Shown here in pieces: positions 1-6,395 of a stretch of 64,000 nucleotides of DNA (position 1 is the first letter of the stretch; each line of letters opens with the position of its first letter). The translations under genes were made by a program, and so were the position numbers. The stretch is from positions 124,001 to 188,000 of the forward strand of contig JAHUUK010000001.1 in the NCBI GenBank assembly GCA_019218375.1, written 5' to 3'. Below the pieces are notes generated by a model that saw only the letters and a list, made by a program, of their open reading frames with translations, had not been told where the DNA came from and made no database searches. Origin of the DNA: Dermabacteraceae bacterium TAE3-ERU5 (GTDB lineage Bacteria > Actinomycetota > Actinomycetes > Actinomycetales > Dermabacteraceae).

Positions 1-3000
1 AGTCTTCCGGCTTGACCTTCGGTACAGGAAGCAGTGCGGCGATGGCGTAGTCGTACCACGAGGTGGAATCGTCGATCAGGTTCGCGCCTGAGTCGATCTC
101 GTCGAGAACCGTCGCCATTAATGGCGGCCAGAACTCTGCCAGCAGGGTGCGCAGTTCGTCGTCATAGCTGAACACGGTAGCGAAACTGTGAAGCAACGAA
201 TGAAGGGCGTGTGCGTTCGACGCGAAAAGGCGGAGGTGCGCGTTGAGAGCCTCCCTGTCTCCTTCGGTTGCAAGCTGGATGAACAGGCGTGCGACGAGCT
301 CATGATGGCGTTCGTCCAAGTGGTCGTAGTTCTCGCGCCAGGCGTGATCAAGGGCTCGCAGATGAGCGTCCCAAAGCGGGCTAGCGAGGAGTTCCGCGCG
401 TGCAACCGTACATTTGGACGAGAGCGCGGCGTGGTTGCAGACCACTGGCATTCGGAGACGGTTGACCAAAAGTTCCTCTCCGGGGACTCTCAGTAGCGTT
501 TGCTCAAAGGGACCCTCAAGTCGGATAGGTTTCCGGCGTTGCGTTTCGTGCTCCCACGGCCCTAGGCGAACGGTCGAAATGCAGGCCTGGATGGCCTCCC
601 ACAACGGCTCGTGTCGCGTGCAAACCATCCCTTTGCTGGTCGCGCAGTCTGCCGCCCATACAGGAGCCGCCCCTTTCGCGAAGGCGGTGCGAACCTCGTC
701 GTAGACACTCGTCGCCAGCGAGATCAATGCTCTTTGAAGGCGAGCAGCATCCACGTCCAGGTGCTCGAAGACCGGCAGGAGTAGAAGCGGTACCGCGATA
801 GCCGCGGCACGATCGGCCCTCATGGAAAAGAGGATTGAGGAGGTGCTGAAACTGTCTATCCATGGCTCTTCAGCTGCAGCGAGCACGCTGTCGACCGCCC
901 AGTCCAGATCGGTCGGTTCTAGTGACACAAGGCTTAAAGCGTGCGCGCGCAGGGCTGCGGCCGCGAGTGCGACAACGGAGTTTTCGTGCCGGTCGAACAT
1001 CGTGAACGAGCTCTCATCCATGAGACGTCTCACCTCGGCAATGTCCGCAGCGATCGAGTCAACCGGCCACGCCTCAGGTGTCTCGTTCTTCAACGCGTAT
1101 GCGACCTCCAGCCGCGTGAACACCTGCGTCATGTTGATCTGAGCGTTAACTGGCTCTAGTGCAGCTTCGATTTTTGCCGGACGCTCAAACTGAACGAGGA
1201 TGTCGCCGTCGACAACGGATGCCCCGTAGTTCTCGGCGCTGAACTCCGCAGCCCAGCTGCCGATCATAGCCAGGTACTGTTCCTGTCCTTCTCTCGTCAA
1301 ATCTGCTTCGGCAGGTGTTGGATCCGATGCCGCTGTTTTTTCGGCGTCAACACTCCGTTGAGCCGACTCCAGTAGCCGTGAGCCGACTGCACTAAGTTGG
1401 TCGAGACGTGCCTGGTTGCCAGCCGCATGCGCGTTGACGACCATCCAGCCGACAGTATCGTGAGGCGAGTACCTGCGCTTGTCCTGGCCTGTCAGCATAT
1501 CGGCGTCACGGTCTCGAACGGTGAACGCCCCTTCATACGTCACGCGTTCAATCTCCAAGTGCCAGACGTCCACGTCTGCGAAAAACGGGTCGAGAAGGTC
1601 TCCCACATCGTCGAGGTGTCGGGTCAAGAATCCGTAGAGCAGGCCGGGAATCGCGAGATTGTGGCAGTCCTCCAGTAGGAGATCGACGATTAAGGCCAAT
1701 GGAATCTCAGCTTCGCTGTGCAAGTGGTCGATGAAGCGTTCGAGCGCAAGGAGTGCGCTCATGCACGGGTAGGGACCGGCACTGGTACCGCGGTACCAAC
1801 TCCACACGTGGGAGTCTCCTACGAAGTGCCGCAGCCCGCTCTTGGCAGTCAGATGTAGCGACACGCCAGGATAGCTGCTCCAGTCAAGGCCTGCGGTCAC
1901 AGTCTGGGTCTCGTCTGTGACGCGATAAAGAGCCGCCTGGTTTAGCATCCGATTTATGAACACGATGGTCTTGAGCGGCGTTAGGTTCAGCAGCTCGAAG
2001 AAGGGACCGAAGTACCAGGCGGCACTAGGCGGCCCGAACCCGAATTTGTCTCCATGTCTGAAGCCACGAATCCCGTCGTGGAGAGGTCTGCATTCCCTCA
2101 GACCGACCCATCCGAGTTCAGTATCTTCTGGTTGGGGTTGCTCGATGTAGTAGGCCTCGGTGAGTTCGAGGAGGAGGTCGGGGTCGATTGGTGCCAAAGC
2201 GCGCACCGAGGACGGTGACTCGGGTATCTCGCGAAGTGAATTCGGCTGCTCGCGAGCGACTGTGCGTAGCCACGAGGCAGCATCGTCGTTGAGGTCTTTA
2301 CCCAGTGCAGCTAGAGCTTGGATTGCGAACTCGTCATAAAGGGGCCGGCCTTGTCCGAGGATCGTTTCACGCACTCGTTGACGGAGAGGGTCAGGACCTA
2401 CTCCGGCGTGAGCCACGCCGCGCAACCACGCGAGTACCAGTTCCTGGACTTGTTCTTGCCGGGTATAGCGCGTGCCGACCCGCGGGCACCCGAGGTCTCT
2501 ATCTTCGCAGAAGGCAACCTCAACAATGGGAGCCAACGCGAACCGGTCACCGAACATGCCTACGTATCGCGAAGCCGCAATGCGCAACAGCGTGTCGAGG
2601 CCCTCTCCTCGTTGGAGTACGTCCCAGAGATCCCCGATCGCCTCGCGTGCATCGCCAACGGTTAGGAGGGCTTCGATTGGGATTTCTCCCCATCGGACCC
2701 CTTCACGAGCGGCGATGGTATTGAACTCCTCGGCCAGCTCATCCCAGACTTGGCGGCGTGTTCGATCACCTAGGTTTGCCAGACGCGCTTCGCACGCCAA
2801 CCTCACTGCCCGAATCGTCCAGCGGGGCGCTGCGTTCTTGGTGAGCGGTGTCCATCCGACTGACAGGAAGAGCCTGCATAACGCGAAGTCGCGGTACAGG
2901 TCTGTTGAGAAGTCAGGCCCTTGAGAGAGGGCAGGGTTCGTATCGGCGCGGAAGACTCCATCGGAACGCAGCTCTCTGACAGCGGCCGAAATAGGAATTG

Positions 3001-4672
3001 CCTCCTGCAGTCCGAGACGCCGCCGAGCGACCGTGAGGGCTGCATCTTCGCGTTCCTCGGGTAGCGCAGTACCCGGTATATGCGTCCCGTCGCGGAGCAC
3101 GAGGCCGTTCCAAACGGCGACGTAGACATCTGCTTCGCAGAGGAGACGATCGGGTTCAATATGCCTGCCAGAACGAAGTAAGGCGTCGACCAGCCCCGGG
3201 CGCCCGAGCAACCAATTGGATTTGGCGTCCTCGTTGACTCGGGTTAGCCCAGGGATGCGTTCGGCGAGGAGCGCGCGTTCTGCCTGGGTGAGTTCCTGAA
3301 CCACATGGATCTGCACCTTTTGCAGGGGATCCACCGTATTGGCTACCCGCTGCAAGACAGCTCCCACAAATTTCGCCCCGTCGGACCGCGTAACTGCCAC
3401 GACGCCCATGGATTGCTTCATTGCCGACGCAGTCAATTCCGTGAAGAGCGACTCGCGGCCCTCCAAGACTGCTTCGCACCCGTCGACTACGAGCAAGCGC
3501 GCCGCGGCGGTCGGCGCGCCACCGAAGAGGTCAGTCAGAGTCACTCCGCCAAGTTGGTTCTCGAACTCAAGGACACTGCCACGAACGTCTCGGAGGCTCA
3601 TACACACGACTAACGCTCCGTTGGCGCGTAGCAAGTCCCCGACTGCCACCGAGAGCGCAGACTTGCCGACGTCTGGCTCGCCCGTAACTATGAGCGGCCC
3701 GCCTGCATCAGCACAGGCCTCCATTGCCCGCCGGAGCGCTTCGACAGCTTCATCACGCTGAAGATGAACCGACTCGGTCCCAGCAGAGATGGTCGAACGA
3801 GTCTGCTGGCGTAGGAGACCATCAAGTCGTTCGACGATCGCCCAGGCACGCTGGTGAGGCCCGAACTGCTTCAACGGATAGGTAGTAAGGCGGCGGCGCA
3901 ACATCGCACCTGTCACCTGAGCACCAGATGGGGCGTATTCTCCGACGAGCTCGGTAAGACTGTGAAGCACGGCCTCTGCCGTTGCCGACGTTCCATCAAG
4001 TACGGCCCCCTGGAGGACTGAGACGGCAGACGATCTGTCAGACGTGTCAGTTCCTTCAAGCTTCAAGGTACGGATGGACAGGTTCGACAGCAGTCTCCAA
4101 ACGAGCTCATCCACGCCGAGGTTGGCTAGGTCGGTGTCCTCGGCCGCGGCGGCAACCAGCTTCTTCAGATGCACCAGGCGATTACGAGTAGGAGCGTTGG
4201 TAGCTCCTGGGCGATTCACGGCGGCGTCGAAGGCGTCGGCGTTAGAAACCGACCGGGCGATGACCGAGAGTGCTGCTACCTCCCCAAACGCCTGTCTCGA
4301 CCCGGCTACGGCCAGCACCAGCGACCATCGCCCAGTGAACACTTCGTCCCAGTGCTCCGTGACAACCTCCAGGAAGGCGCGAATGAGTGGGATAGAGGTC
4401 TTGTCACTGGAGTTAAGGGCTGGATTGCGACGAACTCCGATAGAGGCTCGATGGAGGGCCCCTTCGGGCGCTTTACCCTCAAGGACGATGTCGTCAACAG
4501 CGCTGATGTCACTCGCCTGAAGGCGCACCTTGGTTAGTTCGATGTTGTCACCGATCTCTGCACAAGGTGCTCCGACGAGCAATCGCGCGAGGAGGGTCGC
4601 AGCGTAACGGTGCTCCAGGACAACGCCTCCACCACCCGTGGAGTAGGAATTCGCCGCACGATCTGTCGTCAT
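1..4672 (-). CDS. Giant DUF4297/Cap4-like nuclease-STAND NTPase, putative antiphage protein (3' end beyond window)
   Basis: Reading the reverse strand from the ATG at 4670-4672 gives 1557 codons with no stop, running off the left edge. The N-terminus has a Gly-rich stretch, then E20, the pair D60-D61 and an IGVRRNP strand (residues 78-84). That spacing resembles the E...D...(Q/G)xK core of DUF4297/Cap4 endonucleases, with Arg where Lys is usual. A Walker A motif (GEPDVGKS, residues 331-338) and a Walker B-like strand (LLVVDG, D397) mark a STAND/NACHT-type NTPase. The rest, beyond about residue 600, is long and apparently helical, as in STAND sensor regions. Seen: the continuous frame, P-loop and Walker B. 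Known: nuclease-STAND fusions (Avs group) sense phage proteins and cut DNA. Inferred: an antiphage role. Codon use is less GC-extreme than in the core genes, and the gene lies in a disrupted comM, both pointing to acquisition. The nuclease call is less certain than the NTPase call. Confidence 0.8.
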   Translation of the reverse strand, partial: MTTDRAANSYSTGGGGVVLEHRYAATLLARLLVGAPCAEIGDNIELTKVRLQASDISAVDDIVLEGKAPEGALHRASIGVRRNPALNSSDKTSIPLIRAFLEVVTEHWDEVFTGRWSLVLAVAGSRQAFGEVAALSVIARSVSNADAFDAAVNRPGATNAPTRNRLVHLKKLVAAAAEDTDLANLGVDELVWRLLSNLSIRTLKLEGTDTSDRSSAVSVLQGAVLDGTSATAEAVLHSLTELVGEYAPSGAQVTGAMLRRRLTTYPLKQFGPHQRAWAIVERLDGLLRQQTRSTISAGTESVHLQRDEAVEALRRAMEACADAGGPLIVTGEPDVGKSALSVAVGDLLRANGALVVCMSLRDVRGSVLEFENQLGGVTLTDLFGGAPTAAARLLVVDGCEAVLEGRESLFTELTASAMKQSMGVVAVTRSDGAKFVGAVLQRVANTVDPLQKVQIHVVQELTQAERALLAERIPGLTRVNEDAKSNWLLGRPGLVDALLRSGRHIEPDRLLCEADVYVAVWNGLVLRDGTHIPGTALPEEREDAALTVARRRLGLQEAIPISAAVRELRSDGVFRADTNPALSQGPDFSTDLYRDFALCRLFLSVGWTPLTKNAAPRWTIRAVRLACEARLANLGDRTRRQVWDELAEEFNTIAAREGVRWGEIPIEALLTVGDAREAIGDLWDVLQRGEGLDTLLRIAASRYVGMFGDRFALAPIVEVAFCEDRDLGCPRVGTRYTRQEQVQELVLAWLRGVAHAGVGPDPLRQRVRETILGQGRPLYDEFAIQALAALGKDLNDDAASWLRTVAREQPNSLREIPESPSSVRALAPIDPDLLLELTEAYYIEQPQPEDTELGWVGLRECRPLHDGIRGFRHGDKFGFGPPSAAWYFGPFFELLNLTPLKTIVFINRMLNQAALYRVTDETQTVTAGLDWSSYPGVSLHLTAKSGLRHFVGDSHVWSWYRGTSAGPYPCMSALLALERFIDHLHSEAEIPLALIVDLLLEDCHNLAIPGLLYGFLTRHLDDVGDLLDPFFADVDVWHLEIERVTYEGAFTVRDRDADMLTGQDKRRYSPHDTVGWMVVNAHAAGNQARLDQLSAVGSRLLESAQRSVDAEKTAASDPTPAEADLTREGQEQYLAMIGSWAAEFSAENYGASVVDGDILVQFERPAKIEAALEPVNAQINMTQVFTRLEVAYALKNETPEAWPVDSIAADIAEVRRLMDESSFTMFDRHENSVVALAAAALRAHALSLVSLEPTDLDWAVDSVLAAAEEPWIDSFSTSSILFSMRADRAAAIAVPLLLLPVFEHLDVDAARLQRALISLATSVYDEVRTAFAKGAAPVWAADCATSKGMVCTRHEPLWEAIQACISTVRLGPWEHETQRRKPIRLEGPFEQTLLRVPGEELLVNRLRMPVVCNHAALSSKCTVARAELLASPLWDAHLRALDHAWRENYDHLDERHHELVARLFIQLATEGDREALNAHLRLFASNAHALHSLLHSFATVFSYDDELRTLLAEFWPPLMATVLDEIDSGANLIDDSTSWYDYAIAALLPVPKVKPED

Positions 4673-4953
4673 GACTCAAGGATATTCTTCCTGCCGGGGA
4701 TAAACACCAGCCGCCGACGAGGTAGTCTGCGACTGGCCCTCTGGGAAGAACTGGAGTGACGGCACAGGTGAGGTTGAGAAGCACAGTCGCCACATTAAGT
4801 GGCCCGGCCCTGGCCATCTGATGAGTCCGCGTTACACCGCCACAAGTGGCGCACTCCTCTACATCTAACCGCAAGCAATCTCGAGCCATGGTTCCAGCCT
4901 CGACGCTCACGGCAGAGCTATCAGTGCACCCGGTGTGGTTGGCATTTCACGCC
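4673..4953. other. Island edge next to disrupted comM, with paired inverted repeats
   Basis: This stretch separates the giant NTPase gene from the last comM-derived codon (Glu, 4954-4956). I see no convincing gene in it. It contains two short inverted repeats with the same arms: GCCAC-(5 nt)-GTGGC at 4789-4803 and CGCCAC-AA-GTGGCG at 4838-4851. The comM-side boundary of the foreign DNA is close to 4953, where the protein stops matching the ComM family. I could not identify transposon ends or an attachment core. The repeats could be operators for the large gene or sites used by the mobilising enzyme. Confidence 0.5.
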
Positions 4954-5898
4954 CTCGTCCAGGAACAGCAGGCTGCAGTGGGCGCGGGAGATCGCTCCCG
5001 GCGCGGCCATGCCGCTACCGCCTCCTACTAGCGCGGCCATGGATGTGCTGTGGTGAGGGCTGACCATCGGCGGGGTGCGCAGCAGACCACCGCTCGCATC
5101 GAACACTCCGGATAGCGAGGCGATAGCGCTGACCTGCACGGCCTCTTCGTCGGTGAGGGGCGGCAAAATACCGGGCAGCCTCTTCGCGATCATGGACTTT
5201 CCCGCACCGGGCGGGCCGAGTAGGAAAAGGTTGTGCCCGCCCGCGGCCGCGACAAGCGCCGCCTGTAGCGCCTCTGCCTGGCCCAGCACGTCCGCGAAAT
5301 CTGGGGCGTCACCGGCGGCCTGGGTTTCGGGTGCCTCCTGTTCCGCGTCGGCCTGCCCGGAGCCGATCGGTTTTGTCGCTGCTGGCTCCCCGCGATGGAA
5401 CGCGATAACTTCCGCTAGGGTAGCGGCGCCGACCACTTCCACCCCCGGCACCAGGCTGGCTTCTCGCTGCGCTTCGGCGGCCACCACCACGCGTTTATAT
5501 CCGGCCTGCGCCGCCGCCAAGACTGCGGGCAACACGCCCGGCACCGGGTGCAGTGTGCCGTCCAGCCCGACCTCCGCGTAGTGCACGGATTCCGCCGCGC
5601 TTTTAACGCCGAGCGCTTCGTGCGCGGCAAGCACTGCGACCGCTATCGCTAGGTCGTGCCCGGAGCCGTGTTTGGGCAGCCAGGCCGGGGTCATGTTCAC
5701 GGTGATGCGGCGGGCCGGGAGCGGCACCCCGGCGTGCTGGGTAGCGGAACGTACGCGTTCGCGGGCCTGCAGGGTGGAGGAGTCGGGCAGGCCAACCATG
5801 TGAAAGGCGGGCAGGCCGGGGCTGACGTCGGCCTCTACCTGAACGATTACGCCCTCCAGCCCGCGCAGTAGAACCGTTGCGGTACGGCCGATGCTCAT
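4921..5898 (-). pseudogene. comM: comM/yifB Mg-chelatase-like AAA ATPase, 5' fragment interrupted by an island
   Basis: The start is the ATG at 5898 (MSIGRTATV), which overlaps the yraN stop as ATGA; a longer in-frame start at 5940 has no family support. The product has the ComM N-terminal fold, a Walker A (GPPGAGKS) and a Walker B ending LLFLDE. After that Glu (about residue 315) family similarity stops; ten unrelated residues and a stop at 4921-4923 follow. Intact ComM/YifB proteins are about 500 residues, so the rest of the AAA module and the C-terminal domain are missing. ComM is a hexameric helicase that promotes branch migration during natural transformation. comM is a known insertion target (AbaR islands of Acinetobacter baumannii). 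The remaining 3' part presumably lies left of the window. Loss of function is inferred. Confidence 0.88.
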
Positions 5899-6395
5899 GC
5901 ACCGACTCCCCGCAGGTGGCTGACGTGCACGCCTTCCCACCAGTCAGCGCTATCCCACGCGGCGCTGCCGTGTTCGGGACAGAACTGGGCGGGGTCCAGC
6001 ATCAGAGCGATAACGTCTATCCGGCTATCGCGGTGGCGCGGCGAAAACTCCTCAAAGAACGCCCCGCAAACCCTGCGAATGCGGCGCAGTTTCGCCTCCG
6101 TGACCGCCTCCTGCGGCGGGCCGGTGAGGACGCTGCGGCGGGTCTTGACCTCCACGAACACAAGCGTTTCGCCGTCCCGCGCCACAATGTCGATCTCTCC
6201 CCTGCCGCCACGGTAGTTGGTTTGCAGAATCTGCCAGCCCAGGCCCCGCAGGTAACGGGCCGCAAGGTGCTCACCGAGCAGGCCGGTCTCTTTGCGGCTC
6301 AGCGATGAGACGCGGCAAAGACGGGGCGGGGACTCGGTTTCCGGGTCTGGGGCGTGAGAGACGGTGGCGACTGGCGGCGTGATTGCGGTTTCCAT
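5895..6395 (-). CDS. yraN: YraN family (UPF0102) putative endonuclease
   Basis: The protein has 166 residues; the first 30 or so are non-conserved and Pro-rich, after which the UPF0102 core begins (RKETGLLGEHLAARYL). The core shows the nuclease-like signature GRGEIDIVARD followed by FVEVKTRR, matching the E...D...ExK arrangement of PD-(D/E)xK enzymes. The cellular role of the family is not settled; it is often found next to comM and dprA. The stop overlaps the comM start in an ATGA junction, so both were probably translated from one message. The start could lie further in, but no better ATG or GTG is visible near the core. Confidence 0.9.
   Translation of the reverse strand: METAITPPVATVSHAPDPETESPPRLCRVSSLSRKETGLLGEHLAARYLRGLGWQILQTNYRGGRGEIDIVARDGETLVFVEVKTRRSVLTGPPQEAVTEAKLRRIRRVCGAFFEEFSPRHRDSRIDVIALMLDPAQFCPEHGSAAWDSADWWEGVHVSHLRGVGA

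What the first reader, a model, noticed from the sequence alone, without database searches (positions are those of the whole stretch)
4921..5898. comM cut after its Walker B motif by foreign DNA carrying the STAND gene
ComM similarity ends abruptly after LLFLDE near 4954, and ten unrelated codons lead to a stop. The large gene begins 282 bp further on. The natural transformation helicase is therefore probably inactive in this strain, and the locus serves as an island hotspot, a parallel to AbaR in Acinetobacter comM.
Basis: partly seen in the sequence, partly recalled or inferred. Interest (0 to 1): 0.7.

Follow-up and report, generated by a model that had tools for sequence, protein, structure and literature searches.

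The report
Mobile defence genes split comM
In this bacterium a DNA-uptake helper gene has been cut in two at one exact point where mobile DNA inserts, and the insert that remains is anti-virus defence genes; its sister species carries the missing half of the gene and different defence genes at the same point.

Summary
comM (window 5898 to 4953, minus strand) stops right after the Walker B Asp-Glu codons, runs ten foreign codons to a stop, and a 1681-residue STAND-like gene starts 282 bp on. No comM 3' part and no dprA were found in the genome. The only other same-genus genome held (Dermabacteraceae bacterium TAE3-ERU27) has the reverse: no comM 5' half, but a 3' half plus dprA beginning at the same bases, next to a XhoI-type restriction system and a PDC-S53 helicase. 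Joined at GACGAG, the two halves give an uninterrupted 510-residue ComM.

A third genome, from another family of the order (G196), shows the mechanism. comM is cut at the same GACGAG, its 5' half abuts a large serine recombinase gene, and its 3' half follows relaxase-bearing conjugative DNA ending in the same recombination-site arm. comM's Walker B codons thus look like the attB of serine-recombinase elements. The window holds an integrase-less remnant: a single-gene STAND unit, a complete attP-like site and a broken Shedu gene. The island reading is supported; the AbaR parallel holds in effect, not in mechanism. ComM-family-targeting serine recombinases and defence cargo in comM are published; att-bounded defence units without an integrase are the new variant.

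The parts
4953..5898 (-). comM 5' remnant (ChlI domain, Walker A, up to Walker B Asp314-Glu315)
4953..4959 (-). recombination core GACGAGG (GACGAG shared by all three cut comM genes read); comM codons for Asp-Glu of Walker B; attL core
4929..4952 (-). P' half-site (element side of attL), similar to the P' arms of G270 and G012
   Evidence: 7 and 5 of 4000 random 30-mers score as high against the G012 and G270 arms; not similar to the G196 P' arm (1239 of 4000)
4921..4952 (-). foreign codons and stop that end the truncated ComM frame (overlaps the P' arm)
1..4672 (-). STAND-like (Avs-like) gene, 1681 aa; continues to window position -373 (G000:C1:123627)
5895..6395 (-). yraN, chromosomal neighbour upstream of comM (right flank of the island)
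   Evidence: and position; named by me from its sequence and place, no family search run on it

Best explanation
The Walker B codons of comM (GAC GAG) are the attB of mobile elements that carry a large serine recombinase (LSR). In the ancestor of this strain such an element integrated there, giving comM-5'/core/P'-element-P/core/comM-3'. Shown: the cut is at the core; the left junction has a P' half-site; about 5.57 kb further on, after the single STAND gene, lies a complete P-core-P' site; a second stretch with a broken Shedu (SduA) gene follows; and the chromosome resumes 42 bp before xerC, with the comM 3' half and dprA gone. Also shown: in another family (G196) an LSR gene sits directly at the comM 5' half, and relaxase-bearing conjugative DNA ends at the comM 3' half, with the same core. 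Inferred: the same kind of LSR, now lost, acted in this lineage; deletions later removed the recombinase, transfer genes, comM 3' half and dprA while the defence genes stayed; ComM is inactive and transformation, if the lineage ever had it, is blocked or much reduced; the STAND gene acts in anti-phage defence.
For: Same cut in three genomes: G000 and G001, G196. Joined halves give uninterrupted ComM of 510 aa (G000+G001) and 516 aa (G196). LSR in G196 (Resolvase 6.4e-21, Zn_ribbon_recom 2.9e-6, Recombinase 4.1e-6); the first ATG of its frame lies 43 bp from the core. G196 P and P' arms form an inverted repeat, 0 of 20000 shuffles as good; one G270 site is a perfect 23-bp inverted repeat around an 8-bp spacer. 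TrwC relaxase 1.9e-93 and TraG/TraD-type coupling protein 2.4e-27 in G196; relaxase relatives beside the site in G270 (54-65% identity by piece) and G012 (75%), and a DprA paralogue in G012 (60%). Cargo beside most sites is defence-type: Avs-like and SduA, XhoI-type RM and PDC-S53, PD-Lambda-5 and SIR2-HerA. Flanks of G000 and G001 are 93-95% identical and break at comM. No dprA in G000, present in the 9 other genomes searched. The STAND unit has lower GC, 60.2% against 63.6% and 65.7% in the flanks.
Against: No LSR over the cut-off in G000 or G001. G012 and G270 carry complete P-core-P' sites with no comM on the fetched stretches, which a simple integration does not explain. The LSRs near the G012 and G270 sites are not recognisably related (best alignment E 0.88), and the G270 and G196 LSRs are only 24% identical. 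The G000 left arm matches the P' arms of G270 and G012 but not that of G196 (1239 of 4000 random 30-mers score as well), nor, reversed, the P arms of G196 and G001 (1301 and 1268 of 4000). The inverted-repeat test failed for the G012 and G000 internal sites taken alone (854 and 4281 of 5000 shuffles). By the site profile only 3 of 396 order genomes match (strict filters, and G012 was not in that sample), so the family is rare or diverged. The site's neighbour in G196 is a DprA paralogue, and the genes between the two G270 C88 sites are ABC/FtsX-type, neither a known defence system.
Confidence: 0.85

Rival explanations
1. A Tn7-like (AbaR-type) transposon targeted comM, and GACGAGG is its target-site duplication.
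For: comM is the AbaR target in Acinetobacter, usually within the MgCh domain (PMC11472951 passages); the same bases are present at both junctions.
Against: The core is conserved in four complete sites of G012 and G270 that lie on stretches without comM and, as AACGAGG, in the internal G000 site, which a duplication would not be. The unit holds one ORF over 150 aa in the non-overlapping list, the STAND gene. In G196 the comM 5' half abuts a serine recombinase. No search for tni genes was run.
Confidence: 0.05
2. Random breakage: an illegitimate deletion or insertion happened to end in comM, and the sister's cut is a coincidence or one shared old event.
For: Both genomes show large deletions next to the cut; a single shared insertion followed by cargo turnover cannot be excluded.
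Against: Three cuts fall at the same six bases of a gene of about 1.5 kb, each with an element half-site beside it; the shared 73-bp end is only 74% identical while the flanks are 93-95%.
Confidence: 0.06
3. Assembly chimera or a natural short ComM form.
For: Both G000 and G001 are drafts.
Against: Both junctions lie inside long contigs (415 kb and 822 kb), and 44 of 46 family genomes with a ComM match continue through the position.
Confidence: 0.02

Closest known systems
Large serine recombinase elements that target 'magnesium chelatase/ATP-dependent protease' genes (which I take to be the ComM family), PMC10083194 (passages and the LSR-discovery section read)
   Same: ComM-family gene as attB. 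[quoted passage not shown]
   Different: The paper reports no enrichment of targets within or near anti-phage defence genes, whereas the comM cargo here is defence-type. The window's unit has lost the LSR. The word comM does not occur in the main text, and the section read gives no position within the gene.
comM interruptions in Acinetobacter baumannii (AbaR and other elements), PMC11472951 (passages read)
   Same: comM cut in its MgCh domain by mobile DNA, often with defence systems (the paper names CBASS and Zorya); reduced transformation there.
   Different: AbaR is Tn7-like; here a serine recombinase att system is indicated. Here dprA is lost as well, and the host is an actinobacterium.
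SCC elements and integron cassette arrays (recalled, no call)
   Same: Tandem units bounded by copies of a recombination site, with cargo unit by unit.
   Different: No search for ccr or integron integrases was run; the array here is at most two units in G000 and was not seen to move.

Membership tests
LSR-type integrative element | LSR gene with Resolvase, Recombinase and zinc-ribbon domains at the element end | tested here: met
   Met in G196, beside the comM 5' half.
LSR-type integrative element | LSR gene present in the window's own genome | tested here: not met
   PF07508: one scrap of 35 positions in G000 just below the cut-off (20.9 against 21.1 bits), none in G001. The window therefore holds a remnant, not a complete element.
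LSR-type integrative element | attL and attR share a core, and their outer halves rebuild the intact target gene | tested here: met
   G196 within one genome; G000 plus G001 across sisters.
LSR-type integrative element | attP arms are imperfect inverted repeats | tested here: inconclusive
   G196 0 of 20000 shuffles and one G270 site perfect over 23 bp, but G012 and the G000 internal site not significant.
LSR-type integrative element | Integration and excision by the enzyme | not testable with these tools
   Needs an assay.
ICE (conjugative element), in G196 | Relaxase, coupling protein and integrase in one element | tested here: inconclusive
   TrwC relaxase, TraG/TraD-type coupling protein and LSR are present, but on two contigs (C13, C30), each holding one comM half; that they form one element is inferred, and a mating-pore set was not shown.
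AbaR / Tn7-like comM island | tni-type transposition genes in the element | not tested
   No tni search was run; the unit's only listed ORF over 150 aa is the STAND gene.
AbaR / Tn7-like comM island | Target-site duplication that depends on the target | tested here: not met
   The core stays the same at sites on stretches without comM.
Avs (STAND defence) family | Match to an Avs profile over the protein | tested here: inconclusive
   PADLOC Avs4 1.8e-8 over residues 831-1046 only; AAA_16 below its cut-off; no solved natural relative at E up to 0.1.

The most novel reading that the evidence does not exclude
Actinobacteria carry a serine-recombinase counterpart of cassette arrays: integrase-less units, each one anti-phage system plus a palindromic attP-like site with a GACGAGG core, that accumulate in tandem at the Walker B codons of comM (and elsewhere). 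They would be moved in trans by the recombinase of a co-resident conjugative element, so that gaining phage defence and losing transformation (comM, then dprA) are one event.
Probability: 0.3. Interest if true: 0.75.

Novelty: new variant of a known kind. Interest (0 to 1): 0.52.

Why it matters
It gives one precise, testable point (the Walker B codons of comM) where mobile DNA enters, breaks a transformation gene and leaves phage defence behind, seen as complementary halves in two sister species. It ties the published serine-recombinase preference for this gene family to defence cargo in Actinobacteria. It also supplies an attB/attP pair and a candidate recombinase (G196) for an assay.

Tried and rejected
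Tn7-like/AbaR mechanism: rejected on the conserved core and the G196 recombinase. An early reading of the shared 73-bp end as a simple terminal repeat was dropped when G012 showed that homology continues past the core. Inverted-repeat symmetry from G012 or the G000 internal site alone was not significant. The G270 LSR as the enzyme of the G012 site: not related. Site patterns in viral contigs: 0. Site DNA in phages and plasmids by blastn: no match. ComM alignment in viral contigs: 2 loci with only the first 75-85 residues (confirmed), not followed up. G012 LSR fragment in viral contigs: 3 loci at 48-49%, none with the site by profile. G270 LSR in viral contigs: none. G196 LSR by tblastn: 15 plasmid and 719 phage records, all under 60% identity, best listed about 27%, so no close named relative. 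STAND relatives: 3 of 247 genomes including itself, the other two at 29% identity; their loci gave at best E 0.1 with the site profile. The island DNA search matched 12 of 58 genomes; apart from G000, G001 and G012 the matches fall in the CTGAGC hexamer repeat and were dropped. The order-wide ComM listing (386 of 396 with a match) was cut off in the output, so no count of split comM genes in the order is claimed. The end-motif search hit 5 of 396 genomes at up to 2 mismatches; only G000 and G270 are true sites on reading. In genome contigs there were 4 hits, of which only the sister is real (read).

Full report
Check of the observation. comM is read on the minus strand from 5898. Its similarity runs through the ChlI domain and the first half of the Mg_chelatase domain and stops after LLFLDE. 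Ten foreign codons lead to a stop at 4921-4923. The next gene starts at 4672, 282 bp from 4954, and ends outside the window at G000:C1:123627 (1681 aa). The window is G000:C1:124001-188000 of a 1.92-Mb draft, 96% complete. No C-terminal ComM domain is found in it, and a full-length ComM query finds only the 5' half. dprA (PF02481), which follows comM in the sister, was not found in G000 and was found in the other 9 genomes searched. A ComEC domain in a frame without internal stops was found in all 11 genomes searched.

Left of the window. After the STAND gene come an intergenic stretch, a SduA (Shedu) gene on the + strand (PADLOC 4.5e-70, Pfam SduA_C 9e-13) whose frame is broken by an in-frame stop after 264 codons, and then xerC. 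Identity with the sister genome resumes 42 bp before xerC.

Sister species. The only other same-genus genome held (2 in the genus search) is G001. Its flanks are 93-95% identical to G000. It has lost comM from about codon 7 onward but keeps the 3' half, starting at the same GACGAGG, followed by dprA and xerC. In front of it lie a type II methylase (PADLOC 1.3e-200), a XhoI-type nuclease (PF04555 1.6e-88) and a PDC-S53 helicase (E 0). G000's 5' half joined to G001's 3' half at the core gives a 510-aa ComM that aligns end to end with two relatives. Apart from gaps in the variable middle, it lacks one residue after DEVPEF, just past the core, and has a two-residue gap further on against G005. Of 46 family genomes with a ComM match (47 searched), 44 run through this position; the two exceptions are G000 and G001.

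The recombination site. G001's cut is preceded by an arm also found inside the G000 island about 230 bp after the STAND stop codon (73 bp, 74%). The same arm plus its other half occurs complete in G012 (85% over 73 bp) and at three places in G270. Five complete sites align without gaps. One in G270 is a perfect 23-bp inverted repeat around an 8-bp spacer. The DNA after the core at the window's comM cut resembles the P' arm: 0 of 230 other stretches after ACGAG, and 12 of 20000 random 27-mers, score as high against the G012 and G000-internal arms. Against single P' arms, 7 (G012), 5 (G270), 20 (G000 internal) and 1239 (G196) of 4000 random 30-mers score as high; against reversed P arms, 45 (G270), 343 (G000 internal), 1268 (G001) and 1301 (G196). 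So the window's junction reads comM-core-P', and the sister's reads P-core-comM; the first rests on the G012/G270-type arms, not on G196's.

The recombinase. A profile of the five sites searched over 396 order genomes matched 3 at E up to 0.001: G000, G270 and G196 (strict filters; G012 was not in this sample). In G196, of another family, the match is a P arm followed by the core and the 3' half of comM. Upstream lie a DprA paralogue (PF02481 4.8e-59) and a TrwC relaxase (1.9e-93), and further along the contig a partial cytosine methylase, a primase-polymerase and an IrrE/ArdC-like protein. The 5' half was found on another contig (C30) beside a large serine recombinase with Resolvase, Recombinase and zinc-ribbon domains; the first ATG of its frame is 43 bp from the core. 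About 0.9 kb beyond the recombinase is a TraG/TraD-type coupling protein. The two G196 halves joined at GACGAG give a 516-aa ComM, and the P and P' arms form an inverted repeat (16 aligned bases, 1 mismatch; 0 of 20000 shuffles). This is the attL/attR structure of a serine-recombinase element with comM as attB. That C30 and C13 are the two ends of one element is inferred. Relatives of the G196 relaxase lie beside the sites in G270 C88 (54-65% by piece) and G012 (75%), and of its DprA in G012 (60%, in a copy with an internal stop).

Cargo. A defence system lies next to a site in G000 (Avs-like STAND and SduA), G001 (XhoI-type RM and PDC-S53), G012 (PD-Lambda-5; a 92%-identical copy lies beside the G270 C93 site) and G270 C88 (SIR2-HerA). 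Two cases do not fit: between the two G270 C88 sites lie ABC-transporter and FtsX-type genes, and in G196 the gene next to the site is the DprA paralogue. The STAND assignment is weak: Avs4 1.8e-8 over 216 residues and a sub-threshold AAA_16.

How it works. Shown: the position of the cuts, the rebuilt target, the half-sites, the recombinase at the G196 cut, the defence cargo, and the absence of dprA. Inferred: that a relative of the G196 recombinase acted in this genus, that deletions followed, that the truncated ComM (315 aa plus ten) is dead, and that transformation suffers. Passages of PMC11472951 state that ComM eases recombination of heterologous DNA in diderms and that its loss lowers transformation in A. 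baumannii; whether it does the same in actinobacteria is not known to me. In G001 the 3' half lies in an open frame of 213 residues that can start at a GTG in the P arm. A TAnnAT box begins exactly 40 bp before the core in five of seven arms (not in G270 C93 or G196). Its role as a promoter is a guess; the consensus scan of the G001 junction found no promoter.

Against known systems. [quoted passage not shown] PMC11472951 reports defence systems in cut comM genes of A. baumannii. So the kind is known. What I did not find in print is the exact Walker B attB in Actinobacteria, complementary halves in sister species, loss of dprA alongside, and integrase-less defence units bounded by complete attP-like sites. 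The searches behind this were made, listings of an open-licence library only; searches matched 'comm' as a word start, so they were blunt.

Unexplained. Complete P-core-P' sites on stretches without comM in G012 (whose comM is whole elsewhere) and G270; the unrelated recombinases near them; why G001 lost its 5' half; and where the G000 deletion began.

Noticed in passing
L031 12178-13240 (G000:C1:122178-123240, left of the window): SduA (Shedu) gene broken by an in-frame stop after 264 codons; its 3' part ends in a (CTGAGC)6 repeat (L031 13186-13221), and similar hexamer repeats match in other genomes of the order.
   Followed up: partly
L095 6270-7268 and L081 3583-4539: A DprA paralogue lies beside the relaxase in the G196 element and in the G012 island (60% identical; the G012 copy has an internal stop): an element that cuts comM carries its own dprA-like gene.
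   Followed up: partly
L044 1990-2700: yraN of the sister genome is broken by stops and frame changes, next to the lost comM 5' half.
   Followed up: no
L086 8328-16044: G270 C88 holds a SIR2-HerA system and two palindromic sites 4 kb apart with ABC/FtsX genes between them, an array-like layout.
   Followed up: partly
G000:C7:144546-144650: A 35-position scrap of a serine recombinase, just below Pfam's cut-off, elsewhere in the window's genome.
   Followed up: no
G032:C1:1463036-1473492: comM in another order member appears split near residue 97 by about 9.5 kb, a different position from Walker B.
   Followed up: no
L067 6001-6249 and L068 475-696: Two viral contigs hold only the first 75-85 residues of a ComM-like protein; these may be further comM cuts at another position.
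   Followed up: no
L044 9532-9537 and the matching position of the other sites: A -10-like TAnnAT box begins 40 bp before the core in five of seven arms compared, so the site may carry a promoter reading into the target's 3' part.
   Followed up: no
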